The notes under the pieces are model-generated. The model saw only the letters and a list, made by a program, of their open reading frames with translations. It was not told where the DNA came from and searched no databases. DNA of 64,000 nucleotides, taken from contig NC_057923.1 in the NCBI RefSeq assembly GCF_018873765.1, positions 60,258,593-60,322,592 on the forward strand, read 5' to 3'. This DNA is from Telopea speciosissima (taxonomy: Eukaryota > Streptophyta > Magnoliopsida > Proteales > Proteaceae). Shown here piece after piece: positions 1 to 27,444 of this stretch. Position 1 is the stretch's first letter. Each line of letters starts with the position of its first letter. The translations under genes were made by a program, and so were the position numbers.

Positions 1-3000
1 TTGATCTACATTTCTACAAGTGTGGAGATTGGTACCCGCCATTTAATTGATCTAAGGGTTTTTCATTGGACACAAATCAACTAACCTCCTGATGAATTAT
101 TCTTTCTGGATCATGATCTCAAGGATCAGTTTATATCAATAATACAACAGTAACAATAGAGAGTGGATCCACAGCAGATCATCTGATCCTATTTTTGGTA
201 TTAGGAGACACATTCCTAGTCTAGATCTGGGACAGCTGTGACCAATCTGATATCAATCATTGAGACCATCAGCTGGAGTTACTGTCAAACTGTTTCTGAT
301 GATCCATTCTGACCAATAGATCCAACTATTGAGCAGAGGTTATGGTCAGATAGTTCTCTTGAGAACTAAGATCAATGAATGGGTTAGCATACTCTTAGAG
401 AAGAGAGAAGATCCAATTCCAATCATTGATCTGCTTTACTGGTCCCATTGTATCTCAATATTTTCTAAAGAATGTGCTGCTGCCAACACTCAATTTTATT
501 TTATTAGGGGGGGGGAGGGGGGAGCTGTGAAACACAGCACTCCCAGGTAGATGGGAAAAGGTTAGAGGTCTGAGATCCTGACCTAAGTATCCCCTGATTG
601 GTTTCTTTTGATTGTCAGTAGTGGGGCCACGATGAACAGAAGGAAGAAGTACCTTGGTTAGAAGTGGATTCACTTTCCTCTCGAGTTCATCAAGAGCATC
701 ATTCAGTTCTGACAGCAAACCAACCAACTCTGGAGCGGAACTGTAAGCATGTAATAGGTTAGATAATAGAAGCATCACTCTAACACTTGGAACTCCCATG
801 ATATGTTGAATTTTGGCACACATATCATATGAGACCGAATATTTCTACTCAAAATAATCAAGAAAAAAGTTGTATTTGAAAGCAAAGATGATAATCTTTG
901 CCACATGTTTAGATGTATAATTAGCTTTCAGACCTAATATATCTAAATCAATTTTATACATCCTTATTTCAAAATCATTAAGCATGTAAGTTTTTCGGGC
1001 TCCGCAGCAACATAATTCATGTAAAGAAGGGCTAAAGTAAAAAAAAAAATTTAAATGAATAATAGATTTTATTAAAAAGAGAAAATAACAAAAATCAGCA
1101 AAGCAGCAGCCCAAAAGCCTCCCACCCCACCCCCAAACCCATAAAAAAAAATACACACACGGGGAAAAGAATCTGAAAGAGAAGTCTGAAATCCATTCAA
1201 ATTCACTGGACTATGATGAAAGACATAAGCAGTACCGTTTCCAAAAGCAACTGTCTTCCAATAGCAACAGAACATTCAGTTTTAGTAAACAGCCCACCAG
1301 CTTAGAACGAAACCACTACCAAGTCCCAATTCCCAACTCATCCATCATAACATCATGGAATCATAGTTTTCAAGCATTCCTTTGCCTATCTAAATCGAAA
1401 AAAGGAACAAAAAGGAGTGCCACTTCACTGGATCCTCTCCCTAGACAACTACTTAACATCCATCCAGTTGACCTTGGAGATCCACTAAAGACAAAGGGGG
1501 GATATTCTCTAAGTATCTAATGACAAGAGTTGTTTTTAATCACACCATACACTTGAACCAGAACAAACTAGATAAACCTAAAATTCACCTGGCTCTGTAT
1601 AACTACTGAGATCTGGTCACTCATACATATAGAATGCATGTGTTGGATACATATATGATAAAATCCTACAATGAGTTCACTGCTATATATATCAAAAGAA
1701 TTTCCATGTCTTCTCCAGTAACAAAATCAGTTTAAATATTCAAAACAGCAAAAGAAAAACACTCACCTATAAACAACATCCATTTGTTCCTCTCTTGACA
1801 AAGCATTAATGTCTTTTTTGACCTCCTCGTAAGCTGTCCCAGTGTCATCTTCAGCTTCTTTATTTGCACGAGGCTTTGCCGAGGACCTCCCTTTAAACAA
1901 AATATCCTGCGCAAGGAAGGAAAGTGATATTTCATCTATTTATATCAAATCTATCCCCCCCCCCCCCCAGCTCCTCTTACAAGTGAATTGAAGGGCCCCT
2001 AGGATTTTAGAGAGCAAGAGTCGTGATAAATTTGCCATACTTCTGATCGCTCAGCTGGGGAGAACTCCCCCAACCCCCCCCCCCCACCCCCCAAACCAAA
2101 AAAAAAGGAGAAAAAACAGCACCAAGCTACATACAAGTAAATTGGTGATATGAAATTCTCACCTCTAACACTTTTGGTTCTGCATCAGAATCACTCTCAT
2201 CCTGCTCAGCATCTTCAAGGCCAAAATCTTCCATTGAAAGAGATTTAGCCTTCTCTTTCTGCAATCTCAAAACCTCTGCTTCTTCCTCCGCAGGGAGGTC
2301 CTCATCACTTGATTGTAGCTTTAAATATCAATAAAAAAAATGCATCATAATTCAACTTTTTTTTTTTTTTAATATTGCTTCTTTCAATTATTCGGTTCAA
2401 CATGCGTATGTAAATCATGGGTTTAATCATTTTTAAAGGTAAAATGTAAAATTCTGTATGGAAACTACAATTTAGTGGTCTCTATACATTTAATGGATGC
2501 AAAAGGAAACAAAATCCCTTTGCCATTTTAAAAAGGTAAAGACTATCAAATACTTACCTCATAATCAGCATTATCTGCATTATAGTACAGGTCCTTCCAC
2601 CTACCCCATACAGCCTTCTTTTCATCCTCATCTTCAACATCATCATGCAGTTCATCCTCAACTCCACCAATCCTTTGCCGTAAAAACCTTTGCTGCCTTG
2701 CAACTAGCAATGTAATTGCAATTAATTACTAATTAAGTAATTAGTCAACATAGGAACATAGATTCAATGCAAATCAAATTTCAATTAAAAAAATTATCAA
2801 ACTAAGACACTAGTGCTTCTGATGAGCTAACAGTTATAATTTAAGTCTAAACAATTCATAAATAAACATCCAGCAAACCGTCAACAATGTATTCTCAATT
2901 ACGCCGCATCCAAATAGCCATAGCTCTCAAATAAACATAGAAGATAATATCAAACTGCGCAGCATGATATTTAGTTAATGGATTTGGTAATCCGGTGATT

Positions 3001-5435
3001 AGGATGGACATGTTTGCAAAGAAATAGTAGCAAAATAAAGAAGGATGCAGCAGGTCAGGTTCACCAGAGACTTCCACAGGGAGTTACATCCAAAGTTTAT
3101 GCAAAAAAACTTCAAGGAAGCTGGCGTTTTCAATGAGAGCATAGCTTTCAAGGCAAGAAAGGGGGTTTTGCACCATATCTGATATTGACCAATGACATAG
3201 AGATGAGTTACTCACACTGTTTTTCCTTCTCCTTTCACTAACATAGTTCGAGATCTCGCCGAGTTTCTCGGTTTTTGGAAAAGCTGAGACGATACTGCCT
3301 GCGAGTCTCTAAAGTACAATATCTTGGCGAGATCTCGGATCTCGGTTTGGATCTCGGTTTCGACCCATTTTTTAACCCACCTACCACTTAAATACCTCAC
3401 CTAACTCGACAGAACTCGACATATCTCGGCGAGATCTCGGGTTGACCCAAAGTTGAGGCTTCGAGTTGGAAAAAAAAAATGCACCAACTTGGCGAGATCT
3501 CGACTCGTCTCGGTTTTTCCAAGAGCCAAGTTGGTACCGAGACCCGAGTTTTAGTACCTTGTTCACTAAGAATAAGGTCTTTGAGTTGATTGCTACAAAC
3601 CTCTTGAACGTTCAGTATATAGGACCCCCAGGTTATGAAGGGACTTGAATTTTATTTGCAGTGGAATGAATCCCACATTAGAAGTCTCAGACAATATGGT
3701 TCAAGAGAAAAAAACAAACAAATAACGAAAGTCATAAATTAGAACAGCTACCAATAGACACATGCAGCCAAAACAAACACACAATCTTCACTCGCTAATT
3801 GTTAATAATACCAATTGATCAGGCCGACTACACAATGCTCAAAAGTGTAATTATCGTTTGACCCAATCAAGAGACAATGTCACATGTTTTCTTCTGTGAC
3901 GAAGCTGGGGTCCCAACTAATATATTTCACAAATCCAACTTATTTCACTCTTGAAAATATATCTGAAATTTGTTTTAACAAGACAGGTTGGATACAATAC
4001 ATCTCCCCACATGCCATTAATTCAAATGCATGTGATGCTAGCATAAAAGGGTGGCCCAAACTAAGAAAATTTTAGGAACAGGAACAATGGATTGAATTTC
4101 AGGGTTGCTTGCTATCCTCCCAATTCAAATGTGTAAATGAATGTTGTGGGCATATGTAACAGCTCCTACATATTGTAGTTAATACCTCATAAGGACCATC
4201 ATCATTTCTTTAAAGTCAACAGATGCCCAAATCAAAGCATTCTCAAAAAAGTTGAAATAATTAGTAACTAACTAAATGAGGTCATCGGAAGGTTCCATGT
4301 AGCCGACCCCATTTAGTGGGACAAGGCCGAGTTGTTGTTGTTAATTGACATTTGAAAACAATAATGGTTCAGTGTGGGCATCCCAAATTTTGGCCTGGTT
4401 CTGAATAGTTCGATTTACCCAAGAGAGTAGACTCATACCATTACAATAGCAGCACGGAAAAAGTTAAGAGGATTCAAATGCTCTAGTCCATGATTTGCTC
4501 TCATCCATATATATAATCATTTGACCATTGCACACAATTGAATCAAAATAAATTTAGCAAATGCATACTACAAACGTAACAAGTATCATGTGCCATTCTC
4601 CTCACTTTTTGCTGCAAGGCCAGTAAGTTGTGTATCATCATCATCATCATCATCATTATCCTGCATACAGTACAAAGGTAAGAACACCAGAACAAGACTT
4701 TACCACTTACAAACACAATGTCACCAGCTCTTCTAATAAGAACGAAATCTTCTAAATATTGGGAGAATATACAAAGTTTACAACCTAACATATCTATGTC
4801 TTCTATTATCCTAGTACATAAAATGGCCTGAGAAACCAGAGAAGTAAGAAGGTGCAACTACACTATCACCAACAGCATTACAAATTTTAGCCAAGGCGTC
4901 GACACATCAATTAGATTCTATTTGCCACTTTTTCCGAGGACCCAAGGCTCAAATTTGTCAAATTCAAATCAGAAAATAGATATCCGTCAGTCATGATTAA
5001 CTACCTAACCCACAAGTTGCTGATTAAAGGAGTAGCTTATGGTAAGTAGTACAACAAGTTTATCGCAACTAGAATTCAGAAAAAGATAGCAACAAACCTC
5101 AAAATCAAAGACAGGCTGCTCGTCATCATCATCAGATGCTCCAAAATCCTCATCCACACCCACGTCCAGCGGAACTACATCCCTCTGCTTATGAACTGCA
5201 ATAATACGACACCAATGGAGTGGGGAAAAAACTTTCACGAATATTGAATTAAAAAAGGGAGGGGGAGGGGGAGAAATCAAAGTTGACAGAAACAATCGAG
5301 ATATACAAGGCAGTGAACAATGGAATTACATGCATCAACTTCGTCATCCATATCTTCCTCCGGGAAATACTCATCTCGAGTTTTCTCTTTAGGATTTTTG
5401 ATGTCTTTCTTCTGCCGCTTCGGTCCCTTACCCAT
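1..5435 (-). CDS. SAS10: SAS10/UTP3 (Sas10/C1D family) ribosome-biogenesis protein, 3' end outside the window
   Basis: Seven minus-strand exons can be joined in frame through GT-AG introns: 5330-5435, 5098-5195, 4606-4660, 2558-2703, 2163-2318, 1767-1906 and 653-740. The start is the ATG at 5433-5435, giving MGKGPKRQKKDIKNPKEKT. The product is a very acidic N-terminal region with Asp-rich runs, then AAKIARQQRFLRQRIGG, then VVYSSAPELVGLLSELNDAL, which opens the Sas10/Utp3/C1D domain. Known family members act in the nucleolus in the small-subunit processome (U3 snoRNP) during 18S rRNA maturation. The rest of the Sas10/C1D domain and the basic C-terminal domain are not found in 1-652, so the remaining exons should lie to the left of the window. 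Intron 3 (2704-4605) carries an hAT-like element and a retroelement tail. Exon order, phases and sequence all agree; the missing 3' end is the main limit. Confidence 0.9.
3242..3561. mobile_element. hAT-like miniature element rich in GAGATCTCG, in SAS10 intron 3
   Basis: A 320 bp insertion is flanked by the 8-bp direct repeat TTCACTAA (3234-3241 and 3562-3569), the TSD length of the hAT superfamily. It begins CATAGTTCGAGATCTCG and ends GAGTTTTAGTACCTTG. The interior repeats the palindrome GAGATCTCG several times. The same terminus (cccgagttttag.accttg) recurs at 34742-34761. It has no coding capacity. Confidence 0.65.
4276..4342 (+). repeat. 3' tail of a plant SINE or RTE-type LINE
   Basis: The stretch carries gccgaccccatttagtggg followed by a (TTG)n tail, a 3' end shared by many plant SINE/RTE-type retroposons. 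The same tail occurs inverted at 26330-26385. Only the 3' end is preserved. It lies inside SAS10 intron 3. Confidence 0.55.
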
Positions 5436-5631: not shown

Positions 5632-6284
5632 GCCAGACAGCGAATGAAGTAGCGGGCCAACTTCTTCAGTTCTATGCGTGTTGCTGCGCGCAGAAAAATA
5701 CAAGGGAGGCGAGAATTTACCGCTCCGCCCCCGTGAATTCAAAAAATTCCTTCCTCTTTTTTTTTTGTTGGGAAATTTACGAAACACCTCTCGAAACTCG
5801 GATCACCCCTGAAATTTGAAAATACTCAGATCACCCCCTGGAATAGAGCCCAATACTCAGATTCAACCCTACTGTTAGTGGTCCACTGTTAAACGATGAA
5901 GTCAGCCATTTAAATAATTTTTAAAACCCTAAACTATCCTTGTGCAATGTAAAATTACAATATTACCCTTGCTGAGAAAACCACCCCCCCCCCCAAAATC
6001 TAATGTTATCTTCTTCCTTCTTCACTCTCTTCCCAAAAAACCTGCAACTCCAAAAGTGAACTTCGCCGGACTGAAGAAAGACAAAGAATTTGAAAAATGG
6101 GTTGCCGAGACTGCCGAGATTGCCTTGACTCACGCCCTTATTGAAGCACCCTTATTCAAGCACCCTTCGTTCTTCGTTCTTCACTCTCTTCCTAATTTCT
6201 GACAGAGACGCTGCTCGGCCAAGAAGAGGAAAGTTACATCCGTGCAAGAGTAAATCGAAGGTAAATCTTGAACCATTGCCTTCA

Positions 6285-6996
6285 ATACGGCATACGCCGG
6301 ATCCAATTTTCAGCAAGCCACTTGACCTTGTCCGGACACTACTAGCAGTACCCAATCTTGTACTGCGAAGTGTGGCTCCACGTCTTCTTGCATAAACAAT
6401 CCATCAGTGCATGGAAATACCCATTTTGAAGATAAAAAAGGTGATCTATGTTTTCGTACACCTGAATGTCCACGTCCAAGTAAACCATCTTGCTATACTC
6501 CACGAACTACACAATCAAAACCATAAAAAAGTGGTCAAAATTTGAAACAGAAAAATTAAGAAGAAATCCAAAATAATGAGATAAAATATTGAATGCGGGT
6601 ACTTTGCAGATACGGAGTTTGGAGTAGTTGATGACGTAATAAGCCATGGCGAATTGAGTTTGATTCTCAGGTGGATACTCAGATTAAGTTGCAGGTCACG
6701 AGGAAGAAGGAGAAGTAAAATATTGCGCATAAAGCCAATAACTGCCTGAAAATCCAAAATCCGGTATACCGTTTTGTCTAAAAAATTGAACAATTATTGG
6801 CTTGGAGTCCCCCTAAACGGCTATTAGTTGTGAAAATATGCTAGCGAAACGGTATACCGGATCCAAATTCGGTATACCGTTTCGTCACATCTATGGGTTT
6901 TTGTGAAACGGTATACTGGATCCAATCCGGCATATGCCGTATTGCTCTCTGTAATTTCACAACTGAAATTTTTTTAAAACGGTATACCGGATTTGG
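6285..6996. repeat. Dispersed CGGTATACCG / CGGATCC palindromic motif array
   Basis: The motif gaaacggtataccggatcc and its variants occur in both orientations near 6285, 6760, 6850, 6875, 6905, 6925 and 6978, on both sides of the galactinol synthase fragment. This is seen directly; the function is unknown. It may be a subterminal repeat of the element. Confidence 0.6.
6301..6680 (-). pseudogene. Captured galactinol synthase fragment (two exon pieces with intron)
   Basis: Read on the minus strand, 6680 to about 6606 gives EYPPENQTQFAMAYYVINYS then KLRI. After an intron-like gap, 6507 to 6301 gives FVEYSKMVYLDVDIQVYENI, then DHLFYLQNGYFHALMDCLCK, then KTWSHTSQYKIGYC, two stop codons, and CPDKVKW. 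This follows galactinol synthase (GolS, GT8 family), which makes galactinol from UDP-galactose and myo-inositol. The DGD motif expected at YLDGDIQV is DVD here, and the two Gln codons after GYC have become stops. It is a non-functional piece inside the transposon, not a host gene. Confidence 0.85.
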
Positions 6997-8184
6997 ACGA
7001 GGGTTTGCTCTCCAGTTCTTGCTGGGTCTGCGATTAGCAGAAGCGCAGTTTCCTAGAGAGTGAGGCTGCCCTCTTGTGAGGGGAAGCGTGCTCCATCTTC
7101 AGATCTGTAGCAGGTTTCCGCTTCTGTGATCAAGGTTTGATGGTGTGTGTTTCGTTCTTTGGCGATCATTCTTTTGCAGGTTTGAGGTTTTTTTTTTCCC
7201 TTTAATTTGAGGACGGTTTTTGGCATTTTTGTGATGTCGTTTTAATTTCCTTATATGTCTGAGTTAGTTTTTTTTGTTGCATTTCTGGGATTGAAATTAA
7301 CAGAAGTTGTACAAAATTCTGATTTTATGGCTTTCGGCACCCCGTATGTGTTAGATCTGATTGAATTGATTTATTTTCAGTTGTTTTTTCATTGGAGTTG
7401 AGCTTTGATGGCTCATTTTTTTTTTTCTTTCGATAAAGAGCTTTGATGGCTCATTGGAGTTGAGCAAAGCAGAGGCAGAGGTGGCGGTGCTAGGGCAAAG
7501 CAGAGGCGGCGGTGGCGGACTTGCAAGGAAAGGGGTAGGGTATTTTAGGTTGAAGATGAAGGAAGGGTGGCATTGTAAATTTATTCTAATGATTTATAAC
7601 AAGGTTAAAATAGTCATTTTACACCAATAACTAACAACAGACTAACACCGTTAGTATAGAGGGGGTGATCTGAGTATTTTCAAATTTCAGGGGGTGATCT
7701 AAGTTTCGACCCATTTTCAGGGGTGTTTTGTAAATTTCCCTTCTTTTTTTTTATAAGTAAATTCCTTCCTCTTTGATGCTCATCGGCCTCGCATTGGCGC
7801 AGGCCACACTGCCAAGTAGAGAACCCTCTCCTAATCATCTGGAGTTTTATTTGTCTCAAGTTCTCACCTCCCAGCTCAGAGGTTTGTTTTAGCTTGATGT
7901 ATTTAATTTCATTTCTGAATCCTCTTAGGGCGCGTTTGGTAACAATCTCGAGAATTGTTTTTCAAGCCCGGGAGTGTCTTGGGACCAGAAAAATGGAATC
8001 TAATGTTTGGTAAAATTGATTCTAATTTTCACTCCCAAGAATGAACCGGGTACCAAAGCTGGTCTGGAGATTGGTTTGGAGAAACATGGGTAACCATGTT
8101 TCTCAATCCCAAGATCAATTTTAGGGCAACCTGGTCTGTGAAATCCCGATAAAATATTTAAGCTTCACTACGATTGAAAAAATG

Positions 8185-8360: not shown

Positions 8361-9736
8361 TATTCTTCTTCTTCTTCGTTCTTCTTCTGCTTCTACTTCT
8401 TCTTTTATAAATTCGTTTTTGCCCTTCATTATTATTTTTAGATTTGTATTTTCCCTTTTTTTAGTAGCCCTGCGTTTCAACTCCCCTGGCAGGTAGCCCT
8501 TGTTTTCCCACGATTTTCTGTAGCTCTGTATCAATGGATCTTTGTGTGTGTATGAGTTTTGTTTGTTTAGCCCTTGGTTTACATTTTTTTGTTGTGAAAT
8601 TTTGGAGCTGTAAACTATAAAATAGTTCTTTGAAGTCTCAAACCGAACCATCATACCCATTATTTAACGGCTTTAGATCTCAAGTTTGGATTTCAGAACA
8701 ATTTTGTAATGCTATTACCTCTGTTTGTTGTGAAATCACTTTTCAGAACCTATTATCTTTGTTTGGATTACCCCACTTCTGTATTGCAACTTTGGTTTAT
8801 AAAAATAGAAAATATTAGCCTGTACAGAGATATATTTATCTTAGAAAAAAGATGGACCCCATTAATTTAAGGTTCAGGTCTATCTTGGCCCTTGATGGCC
8901 CTGGTAGTCAAAATGGAAACCCACCTCATAGCTGTAACTTGTGAGAAGATATTAAAATTCTGCTTTTGTTTAACTTAAAAATAATTGAAATAATCTTCTG
9001 GAAGATTCAGCATTTATCATTTATGTCACGTGAAAGCAGAGAAAAAGCAAGGAAGGGAAGGGGGGGGAGGGGAAGGAAAGAAGGGGACAATAATTCAATA
9101 TTCAATTTGATAATTTCAAATTCCGTACACTTCCATTAAAAAAAAAAAGGGGGTAGAAATATACAATATGAGAAAGTATTGATAATAATGAAACATGGAA
9201 GTCAAGTTTTGTGCACCTGAATGTCTTGTATTGCACAGTATGGTCTGTAATTTCACAAGTTTTGTGCACATGAATGTCTTATATTGCACAGTATGCTCTA
9301 TAATTTCACACTTTTCAAGTTTGAATAAACTCTGTTTCTTCCTCCATGACATTAGATTATTATCTCAGCCAATAAAAGCCACTTGTCAAAACCAAAAAAG
9401 AAGTTATATGCATTCCTGAATTGCATTATCAAGCAGCATAATATATTCCTCAATTCTTCGCTAGTTTTGTTACAATGTTTTGTATCCCAAGTTTTCAGCC
9501 AGGGGACCAACTTACATTCAGTAAGGGCAATGGCTATACCTCCCAAGTGCATTGTTGGTTTTCTTTCAAACTATACTACTTGATTCTTCTAAGTGAACTG
9601 ATCCAAATCAAATGCTGAGTATTGAAAAGAAGGAGGGGGAGTTTGTAAGGCAAGTGATGTTTATGGGTTTGGAGTAGTTTTATTGGAGCTTTTGAGTGAA
9701 AGGAGATGTGAAGAAGGGTTAGTTGTTGAGTGAGCA

Positions 9737-10965
9737 TTGTCCTTGATTAGGGCTATAAGACTTGCTAACCAAGAATATAGGATGGAACGGCATGTATTCG
9801 TTAACCTATGTAGTCTAATGGTTAATAGAGGTTGGTTGAATGATACTCAGTATATTAGGGTAGATGAACAGATAGCAATGTTCTTGTTCACAGTAGGAAA
9901 GGGAGCAAGTAATAGAGATGTGCAAGAGAGATTTCAGCATTCTGGTGAAACAATTAGCCGAATCTTCAACATGGTATTGCTAGCTATGCGTAAATTAGCT
10001 AAAGAAAGAATCAGGCCACCAAGATTCAATCGAATCCCTATTGAGATTGAAGCAAACCCAAAATACTATCCGTATTTCAAGGTAACCAAAATTGAATGTT
10101 TCAATTACATATTCAACTATGTATATTTGCTTACTTAGCTAAATTAATAATGATTTATGTCTATAGGATTGCATTGGTACCATCGATGGCACTCATATCC
10201 ATGCTATTGTACTAATGGAAGATCAAACACGATATCGAAATCGAAAAGGAATTACAACACAAAATGTCATGTGTGCTTGTTCTTTTGACATGCGCTTCAC
10301 ATTTGTGAATGTTGGTTGGGAAGGTAGTGCCAATGATTGTCGGGTCTTTGAATCAGCAAGAAGTAATCCAAGTTTTAACTTCCCTCATCCACCTCTAGGT
10401 GACTATTTATACAGTTAAAAGGTAAATAGAATATTTTGATGCATATTATATATCACTTTAATTGTAATTTTGTTTGGTAGGCAAATATTACGTTGTAGAC
10501 TCTGGTTATGCGAATCAAACAGGATATTTGACACCGTTCAGAGGTGAGAGATATCATCTTCCAGATTATAGAGGTGCGGGAAGAACTCCAAGAACAGCTA
10601 GAGAATTGTTCAACTACAGGCATTCCTCTTTGAGGAATGTCATTGAACGTACATTTGGAGTTCTCAAAAACAAATTCTTGCTTTTAAGACAGATGCATCA
10701 TTTTTTTGTGAAGACCCAAGGAAACATTGTCATTGCATGTTGTGGTTTGCATAACTACATTAGAGATGAACAAAAATTAGATAAAGATTTTTCCAAACTT
10801 GGTGGAGATGAAGCTGAACCAGATCCTGATGAGTTAAACCCACCTCCTGAAGAGTATAATGGATCCTCATCATTGAGTCAAAGGGAACAAGCCAGACAGA
10901 TGAACGATATTAGGAACCGACTTACAAACGTGTTGGCTAGAAAACACCGGCTTGCTCCAATTTAA
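9737..10965 (+). CDS. PIF/Harbinger (HARBI1/ALP1-like) DDE transposase, 5' end unclear
   Basis: Three exons join cleanly: 9737-10081, 10167-10398 and 10481-10965, with GT-AG introns of 85 and 82 bp. Together they give about 353 residues. The order is an N-terminal helical domain (ERFQHSGETISRIFN), then DCIGTIDGTH with the first catalytic Asp, GSANDCRVF with the second Asp, GKYYVVDSGY, TPFRGERYHL, and NVIERTFGVLKNKF with the catalytic Glu, so the DDE triad is intact. No ATG opens the first exon: a stop (TGA 9731-9733) lies just upstream and the frame begins at a TTG. The true start is either in an unseen upstream exon or lost. Inside the genome such proteins excise and insert their element at TTA sites. 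Confidence 0.85.
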
Positions 10966-27076: not shown

Positions 27077-27444
27077 GGGTAAATTATATGTCACCCCCTG
27101 ATTTTCAAATGAAACTCAAATCACTCCCTAGTTTTTGAAAAAACTCAAATCCCCCCCCCCCTCTACAGTAACAGTGTTAGTCTGCTGTTAGTTATTGATG
27201 TGAAAGGACCATTTTACCCTTGTATTAAAATATTAAAATTAAATTTACAATACACTGCTAAAGGGTAGTTTAGGGGTTTAAATTACTTTAACTAGGTGAC
27301 ATCATCATTTAACGACATAAAACTAACATTAGGGACTAATTTGTCATATTGAGGTCTAAACCAGGGATGATTTAAGTTTTTTTAACAAACCAAAGAGTGA
27401 TCTAAGTTTCGTTTAAAAATCAGGAGGTGAGGTGTAATTTAACC
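27077..27444. mobile_element. Mutator-like MITE with perfect 9-bp TSD
   Basis: The element begins GGGTAAATTATATGTCACCC and the reverse complement of its right end is GGTTAAATTACACCTCACC. It is flanked by the identical 9-mer TTTCTAAAA (27068-27076 and 27445-27453). Sub-terminal text (ctgattttcaa, agtaacagtgttagt) matches the larger element at 5770-7740, so the two belong to one group. Confidence 0.85.

What the first reader, a model, noticed from the sequence alone, without database searches (positions are those of the whole stretch)
5770..7740. Mutator-like transposon that captured a galactinol synthase gene fragment
Long terminal inverted repeats enclose two exon pieces and an intron of a galactinol synthase gene in reverse orientation. 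This is the Pack-MULE pattern of gene-fragment capture. The fragment has lost the DGD motif and gained two stops, so it is old or unconstrained. An antisense transcript across it could in principle affect the parent gene.
Basis: partly seen in the sequence, partly recalled or inferred. Interest (0 to 1): 0.7.

Follow-up and report, generated by a model that had tools for sequence, protein, structure and literature searches.

The report
Transposon carrying galactinol synthase gene piece
This is a short plant jumping element of the Mutator kind that carries a copied piece of a sugar-metabolism gene, spread to at least five places in the genome and is now decaying; elements of this kind are well known, and this one is a clearly traced, somewhat elaborate example.

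Summary
Confirmed and extended. Window 5770-7740 is one Mutator-like element with long terminal inverted repeats (TIRs) enclosing two exon pieces and an intron of galactinol synthase (GolS) on the minus strand. Four more full-length copies, all with the GolS piece and 3.4-4.8% apart pairwise, lie elsewhere in the genome, so TIRs and fragment move as a unit. Its MULE relatives mostly have 9-bp target duplications; the window copy's own is weak (7/9, in a T-run).

The element is a mosaic: left arm of one MULE subfamily, the GolS piece, a GGTATACCG array, and the right arm of a second subfamily that carries DNA from upstream of a glycolipid-transfer-protein gene.

Closest relatives found are three tandem GolS genes, 85-90% identical; none looks like the direct donor.

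Corrections: both stops and the DVD change are private to this copy; the genes read DAD, not DGD. Differences from the genes are mostly synonymous, while differences among copies look neutral, so the donor was a working gene, perhaps since lost. A MULE with other TIRs captured GolS separately. Antisense effects are untested. New member of a known kind (Pack-MULE).

The parts
5770..5839 (+). left terminal inverted repeat (10 bp shorter than the right arm)
   Evidence: homologous to the ends of the relatives
5770..6198 (+). left arm shared with MULE subfamily A (non-carriers such as L018-L031; matched length 322-429 bp)
   Evidence: left arm of carrier C6 95.7-97.0% to L019, L024, L029
6309..6678 (-). 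captured galactinol synthase fragment (whole; the window's own BLAST match is 6317-6678, the other copies extend it to the position of 6309)
6318..6506 (-). GolS downstream exon piece (FVEYSKMVYLDVDIQVYENIDHLF...CPDKVKW); DVD codon at 6471-6473, two TAG stops at 6339-6344
6507..6602 (-). retained GolS intron (GT and AG still present)
6603..6677 (-). GolS upstream exon piece (YPPENQTQFAMAYYVINYSKLRICK)
6740..6997 (.). GGTATACCG inverted/direct repeat array, shared with subfamily A and, at lower identity, with a >4-kb family that encodes a SWIM-finger ORF
7000..7740 (+). right arm shared with MULE subfamily B (L013, L014, L015; parts in L049-L051)
7178..7416 (+). second captured piece: DNA matching about 0.6-0.9 kb upstream of the presumed start codon of a glycolipid-transfer-protein gene (L048:4720-4988), 80% identical
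7660..7740 (-). right terminal inverted repeat
5761..5769 (.). left flank, possible 9-bp target duplication (TTTTTTGTT)
   Evidence: 7 of 9 against 7741-7749
7741..7749 (.). right flank, possible 9-bp target duplication (TTCTTTTTT)

Best explanation
A non-autonomous Mutator-like element (Pack-MULE). Shown: long TIRs, 9-bp target duplications in the family, five dispersed full-length copies, and pieces similar to two unlinked host genes between the TIRs. Inferred: a subfamily-A MULE acquired, at DNA level (the intron is kept), a 370-bp internal piece of a GolS gene (end of one exon, intron, start of the next) within or beside its GGTATACCG array. It was joined to the right half of a subfamily-B MULE that already carried DNA from upstream of a glycolipid-transfer-protein gene. 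The chimera was then mobilised, presumably in trans by a MuDR-type transposase, in a short burst to at least five sites. Since then the copies decay neutrally with methylation-type C to T changes. Any effect on GolS genes by antisense RNA or small RNA is unproven.
For: TIR pairing. Flanking 9 bp match 9/9 in 12 of 24 elements and 8/9 in 6 more; among 552 swapped pairs 3 reach 9/9 and 18 reach 8/9. Five full-length carriers, pairwise 3.38-4.78% different, forming a near-star. Intron retained. Modules traced to subfamily A and B relatives. Second piece and its gene (PF08718, E 7.3e-35 for joined exons). Exon differences of the copies from their majority are 6 synonymous, 23 non-synonymous, 6 stop, close to the make-up of all possible single changes, 137:606:49. 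C to T makes 126 of 206 differences from the majority, touching 7.6% of CG, 4.4% of CHG and 1.4% of CHH cytosines. A >4-kb family that shares the array has a SWIM-finger ORF and a Transposase_32 ORF.
Against: The window copy's own target duplication is weak (7/9, T-run), and two of the other four carriers have none to speak of (L009 5/9, L010 2/9). A 16-bp direct repeat (5744-5759 and 7759-7774) just outside the TIRs is unexplained. Inside the carriers only matches of up to 16 bp to the TIR were seen away from the ends, so the A/B fusion is inferred from arm similarity only. No autonomous partner with these TIRs was found: the 4-kb pieces of the SWIM-finger family gave no TIR hit. No direct donor of the GolS piece was found, and the DNA search meant for it did not complete.
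Confidence: 0.93

Rival explanations
1. Ordinary GolS pseudogene with unrelated inverted repeats around it by chance.
For: Two stops and missing ends are typical of pseudogenes.
Against: The piece is internal to the gene, keeps its intron, ends inside the element and recurs with the same TIRs and borders at five places.
Confidence: 0.02
2. Selected Pack-MULE gene: before the burst the GolS piece was conserved by selection inside the element, giving a short protein or regulatory RNA.
For: Exon changes that separate the copies from the three GolS genes are 9 synonymous to 2 non-synonymous; on the fragment side they are 5:1, 4:1, 4:1 or 7:2 by four different outgroups. No closer living donor was found. 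The intron's GT remains in four of five copies (C3b has lost it) and its AG in all five, and in 1 of 5 copies (C3a) the joined reading frame stays open.
Against: A working donor gene that was later lost gives the same pattern. Among the copies there is no constraint (6 synonymous, 23 non-synonymous, 6 stop). The piece has only an internal Met and covers about a fifth of the enzyme's Pfam profile.
Confidence: 0.08
3. Antisense or siRNA regulator of the GolS genes: transcription from a TIR across the minus-strand fragment makes RNA complementary to GolS messages.
For: Each of the five copies shares 36-64 exact 21-mers and 24-55 exact 24-mers, longest 36-72 nt, with each of two GolS genes tested (the third gene was not tested). 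Review PMC13317346 (passages read) reports that elements with captured sequence act as siRNA reservoirs for donor genes in maize.
Against: No expression data here. Differences among the copies look neutral, so no maintained function is visible.
Confidence: 0.1

Closest known systems
Pack-MULEs (Jiang et al. 2004, not read; seen as cited in PMC8903248 and PMC13317346)
   Same: Non-autonomous MULE with long TIRs and 9-bp target duplications carrying host gene fragments, introns included, from more than one locus, amplified to several copies.
   Different: Nothing of principle. Here the GolS piece is internal to the gene, and an element with other TIRs captured GolS separately.
Pack-TYPE fusion elements ('AB' groups, PMC8903248, section 9 read)
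   Same: Left arm from one subfamily, right arm from another, new DNA in the interior.
   Different: No internal TIR copy was found, and the GolS piece lies inside the A-derived part rather than at the A/B border, so simple fusion does not account for the GolS capture itself.
Pack-mutator-like elements of sacred lotus (PMC4053705, passage read: 1,447 elements)
   Same: Shows that this class is abundant in another plant, a basal eudicot.
   Different: Different genome; galactinol synthase does not appear in the two passages seen.

Membership tests
Mutator-like element (MULE) | long terminal inverted repeats | tested here: met
   70- and 81-nt arms; about 82 nt in relatives
Mutator-like element (MULE) | 9-bp target-site duplication (length recalled) | tested here: met
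   met for the family: 12 of 24 perfect, 6 of 24 with one mismatch, 6 of 24 worse; the window copy itself 7 of 9, alone inconclusive
Mutator-like element (MULE) | mobilised by a MuDR-type transposase | tested here: inconclusive
   a >4-kb family sharing the repeat array has a SWIM-finger ORF and a Transposase_32 ORF; no shared TIR seen in the pieces held
Pack-MULE | host gene fragment enclosed by the TIRs and ending inside them | tested here: met
   for GolS; for the glycolipid-transfer-protein upstream piece
Pack-MULE | no transposase of its own (non-autonomous) | tested here: met
   none of the 13 open frames of 150 aa or more in the window lies within 5770-7740; shorter frames were not searched for transposase
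Pack-MULE | related genes elsewhere in the genome | tested here: met
   three tandem GolS genes at C4:65.50-65.52 Mb; these are relatives, the direct donor was not found
Pack-MULE | transposed as a unit | tested here: met
   five full-length copies on contigs 1, 3, 3, 6 and 8
functional galactinol synthase | complete GT8 domain, open frame | tested here: not met
   profile positions 96-144 of 253 only; in-frame stops in 4 of 5 copies

The most novel reading that the evidence does not exclude
The five transposon copies preserve a piece of a galactinol synthase gene that no longer exists in this genome: the piece separated from the tandem GolS genes long before the burst, gathered mostly synonymous changes while its donor was a working gene, and was captured and amplified before the donor disappeared. 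The alternative, that the piece was itself under selection inside the element before the burst, would be more novel but fits less simply.
Probability: 0.35. Interest if true: 0.5.

Novelty: new member of a known kind. Interest (0 to 1): 0.32.

Why it matters
It is a well traceable case of gene-fragment capture: acceptor subfamilies, relatives of the donor, the captured piece with its intron, and five daughter copies are in one genome, so the order of the steps can be read. The change from constrained to unconstrained evolution marks when the piece left a working gene. GolS, a stress-related sugar gene (recalled), was captured at least twice by MULEs with different TIRs, which makes the siRNA/antisense question testable in this plant.

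Tried and rejected
Rejected: chance inverted repeats or ordinary pseudogene (four other copies with matching borders). Rejected: 'old' element (copies 3.4-4.8% apart). Rejected: loss of the DxD motif (DVD here, DAD in the contig-4 genes; both Asp kept). Considered and left open: retroposition of the element, suggested by the 16-bp direct repeat and T runs outside the TIRs; family-wide 9-bp target duplications make ordinary MULE insertion far more likely. Considered: simple fusion of neighbouring insertions as the source of the GolS piece; no internal TIR copy, and the piece lies inside the A-derived part. Considered: direct donor = a contig-4 gene. Against it: copy-to-gene differences at silent sites (third positions 0.187, intron 0.223 on average) far exceed those among copies (0.036, 0.032). 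But only 11 exon changes carry the constraint argument, the polarity of single sites differs between outgroups, and deeper nodes of the tree have support of only 48-51. The species is not established: assembly size and 11 large contigs recalled Telopea speciosissima; two paper searches gave no confirmation. Paper searches: Pack-MULE + galactinol synthase, 0 papers; galactinol synthase + transposon + gene fragment, 2 listings, neither about this by title, not read.

Full report
OBSERVATION. Window 5770-7740 (1,971 bp) begins GGGAAATTTACGAAACACC and ends with a near complement of it; the arms pair at 81% over 81 columns, with a 34-bp perfect stretch. Minus-strand frames contain YPPENQTQFAMAYYVINYSKLRICK (6603-6677) and FVEYSKMVYLDVDIQVYENIDHLF...GYC**CPDKVKW (6318-6506), with a 96-bp intron between them. 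The stop-free part of the second piece matches Pfam Glyco_transf_8 at E 3.3e-07; the first piece, 27 aa, has no hit. A peptide mixed from the other copies finds only weak matches among solved structures (a galactosyltransferase and glycogenins, best E 0.02).

OTHER COPIES. The genome that holds the window (823 Mb, 1,287 contigs) has four more full-length copies, on contigs 1, 3 (two) and 6, each with the same GolS piece; the search scored 40 of 2,589 candidates, so more copies may exist. Pairwise differences are 3.38-4.78% (66-93 changes) and the fragment tree is near-star-like: a short burst. Of 206 differences from the five-copy majority (184 private to one copy, 22 shared with another), 126 are C to T (strands folded), at 7.6% of CG, 4.4% of CHG and 1.4% of CHH cytosines, as expected of methylated transposon copies.

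TARGET DUPLICATIONS. For 24 elements the 9 flanking bases match 9/9 in 12, 8/9 in 6 and fewer in 6. Among 552 swapped flank pairs, 3 reach 9/9, 21 reach 8/9 or more and 74 reach 7/9 or more. Of the five carriers one has 9/9 (L011), one 8/9 (L012), the window 7/9, L009 5/9 and L010 2/9. One search mapped 29 loci; five (L014, L023, L034, L036, L037), whose right end was not clear, were left out of the count, and five ends were shifted by 1-3 bases to the expected TIR end. Several duplications are runs of A or T and say little. The window copy lies in a T-run, and a 16-bp direct repeat flanks it at 10 and 18 bp distance (none of 2,000 single-base shuffles reaches this); that repeat is unexplained.

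MOSAIC. Mapping the contig-6 carrier on 16 relatives: positions 1-368 are 95.7-97.0% identical to L019 and L024, and 1-328 96.6% to L029 (subfamily A; 1-425 match L018 and L028 at 87-90%); 536-905 is GolS; about 967-1264 is an array of GGTATACCG repeats found in A elements and, at lower identity, in a >4-kb family L053-L058 whose L054 member has a SWIM zinc-finger ORF and a Transposase_32 ORF; 1266-2009 is 84-89% identical to L013-L015 (subfamily B; in L014 up to 1964), with parts in L049-L051 at 91-95%. In the window, 7178-7416 is 80% identical to L048:4720-4988. That DNA lies upstream of an ATG that opens MEGTVFTPSLEGMKHVKSEDGELLTKPFLDVCKF. Exons about 6 kb further downstream give PF08718 glycolipid transfer protein, E 7.3e-35 when joined. 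The first exon itself had no Pfam hit; its assignment to the same gene is inference, helped by recall. B elements L013-L015 carry a longer stretch of the same upstream DNA in two pieces. Inside the carriers only TIR matches of up to 16 bp were seen away from the ends.

GOLS RELATIVES. Three GolS genes lie in tandem at C4:65.502, 65.509 and 65.521 Mb, with a first-exon piece between the last two; none was seen in the 7.5 kb before or 5 kb after (L062, L063). A search with the protein of one of them, 41 of 41 candidates scored, gives nine GolS places besides the five carriers, plus weaker hits of 41-49% identity over about 40 aa. Compared at DNA level with the fragment, the array genes are closest (10.5-14.8% different); C8:63.138, C8:12.022, C3:7.287 and C5:9.012 Mb are farther, and so is C6:56.968 Mb. 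Three of the nine are broken: C5:9.012 and C6:56.968 Mb share an insertion of about 176 nt in the exon, and C8:6.955 Mb is a second MULE capture (below).

SELECTION. The majority of the five copies differs from all three array genes at 11 exon sites, 9 synonymous and 2 non-synonymous (codon positions 0, 2, 9), and at 14 of 85 intron sites. Against two array genes the count was 0, 2, 10 (p 0.0005 against one third at position 3). Differences of the copies from their majority, shared ones counted once per copy, are 6 synonymous, 23 non-synonymous and 6 stop, positions 15, 12 and 8; the contrast between the two sets has Fisher p 0.0004, computed on the 2:10 count. Polarised by four outgroups separately, the fragment side has 5:1, 4:1, 4:1 or 7:2 synonymous to non-synonymous; the array side 2:1, 4:1, 5:1 or 2:0; the outgroups disagree on single sites. 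Silent differences between copies and array genes average 0.187 (third positions) and 0.223 (intron), against 0.036 and 0.032 among copies and 0.098 and 0.085 among array genes. So, by inference, the piece's lineage had left that of the array long before the burst, was constrained for most of that time, and has been free since. The array genes do not look like the direct donor; a lost or unassembled GolS gene is the simplest donor. Counts are small, the deeper nodes are weakly supported (48-51), and a direct DNA search for the donor did not complete.

Both stops (CAG CAG to TAG TAG) and the DVD change are private to the window copy among the five. The array and the other four copies have DAD, and the two aspartates stay. 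In-frame stops lie in 4 of 5 copies when the exons are read joined; C3a alone is open.

A SECOND CAPTURE. At about C8:6.9544-6.9554 Mb a 916-bp element with different TIRs (only about 24 terminal bases align well to the window family) and flanks that match 7 of 9 by eye carries GolS exon 1 joined to a later exon part, with about 380 bp missing between. Thus MULEs with two kinds of TIR captured GolS DNA separately.

REGULATION. Every carrier shares exact stretches of 36-72 nt with each of two array genes, long enough for 21-24-nt RNAs to act in trans. No RNA data exist here. The element lies about 335 bp from the presumed ATG of a minus-strand gene (MGKGPKRQKKDIKNPKEKT...) that resembles SAS10/UTP3 (recalled; two short pieces gave no Pfam hit).

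KNOWN KIND. The structural Pack-MULE features tested are met at family level; mobilisation by a given transposase was not settled. PMC8903248 (passages and section 9 read) describes Pack-TYPE elements made of two related elements (AB), with newly gained DNA inside, and elements with DNA from several loci. [quoted passage not shown] PMC13317346 (passages) reviews capture and siRNA effects. The finding is therefore a new member of a known kind.

Searches were added on re-checking: they closed a gap (C6:56.968 Mb had not been compared with the fragment) and tested the polarity with each outgroup.

Noticed in passing
L069 (G000:C8:6952500-6957500), about 1941-2856: A second, independent MULE with other TIRs that carries a different galactinol synthase piece: exon 1 joined to a later exon part with about 380 bp missing, and a stop.
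   Followed up: partly
window 5744-5759 and 7759-7774: A 16-bp perfect direct repeat (AAATTCCTTCCTCTTT) flanks the element just outside its TIRs, longer than a MULE target duplication and not adjacent to the ends.
   Followed up: partly
window 27111-27385: A short element of about 275 bp with ends related to the same MULE family, a possible miniature relative.
   Followed up: no
L053-L058: A family longer than 4 kb, about 91-96% identical in the long alignments, with a SWIM zinc-finger ORF and a Transposase_32 ORF (tested in L054), that shares the GGTATACCG array; a candidate for an autonomous partner.
   Followed up: partly
L065 (G000:C5:9011600-9012600) and L070 (G000:C6:56967700-56968900): Two galactinol synthase pseudogenes that share an insertion of about 176 nt in the exon and read DVD at the DxD motif; L070 has weak TIR-like matches nearby (best E 0.003), so these may be a further captured copy.
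   Followed up: partly
window 9734-10965: Frames that look like a PIF/Harbinger-type transposase (recalled resemblance, no search run).
   Followed up: no
window about 1-5435, minus strand: Gene resembling SAS10/UTP3 (recalled) whose presumed start codon lies about 335 bp from the element, so the insertion is in its upstream region.
   Followed up: no
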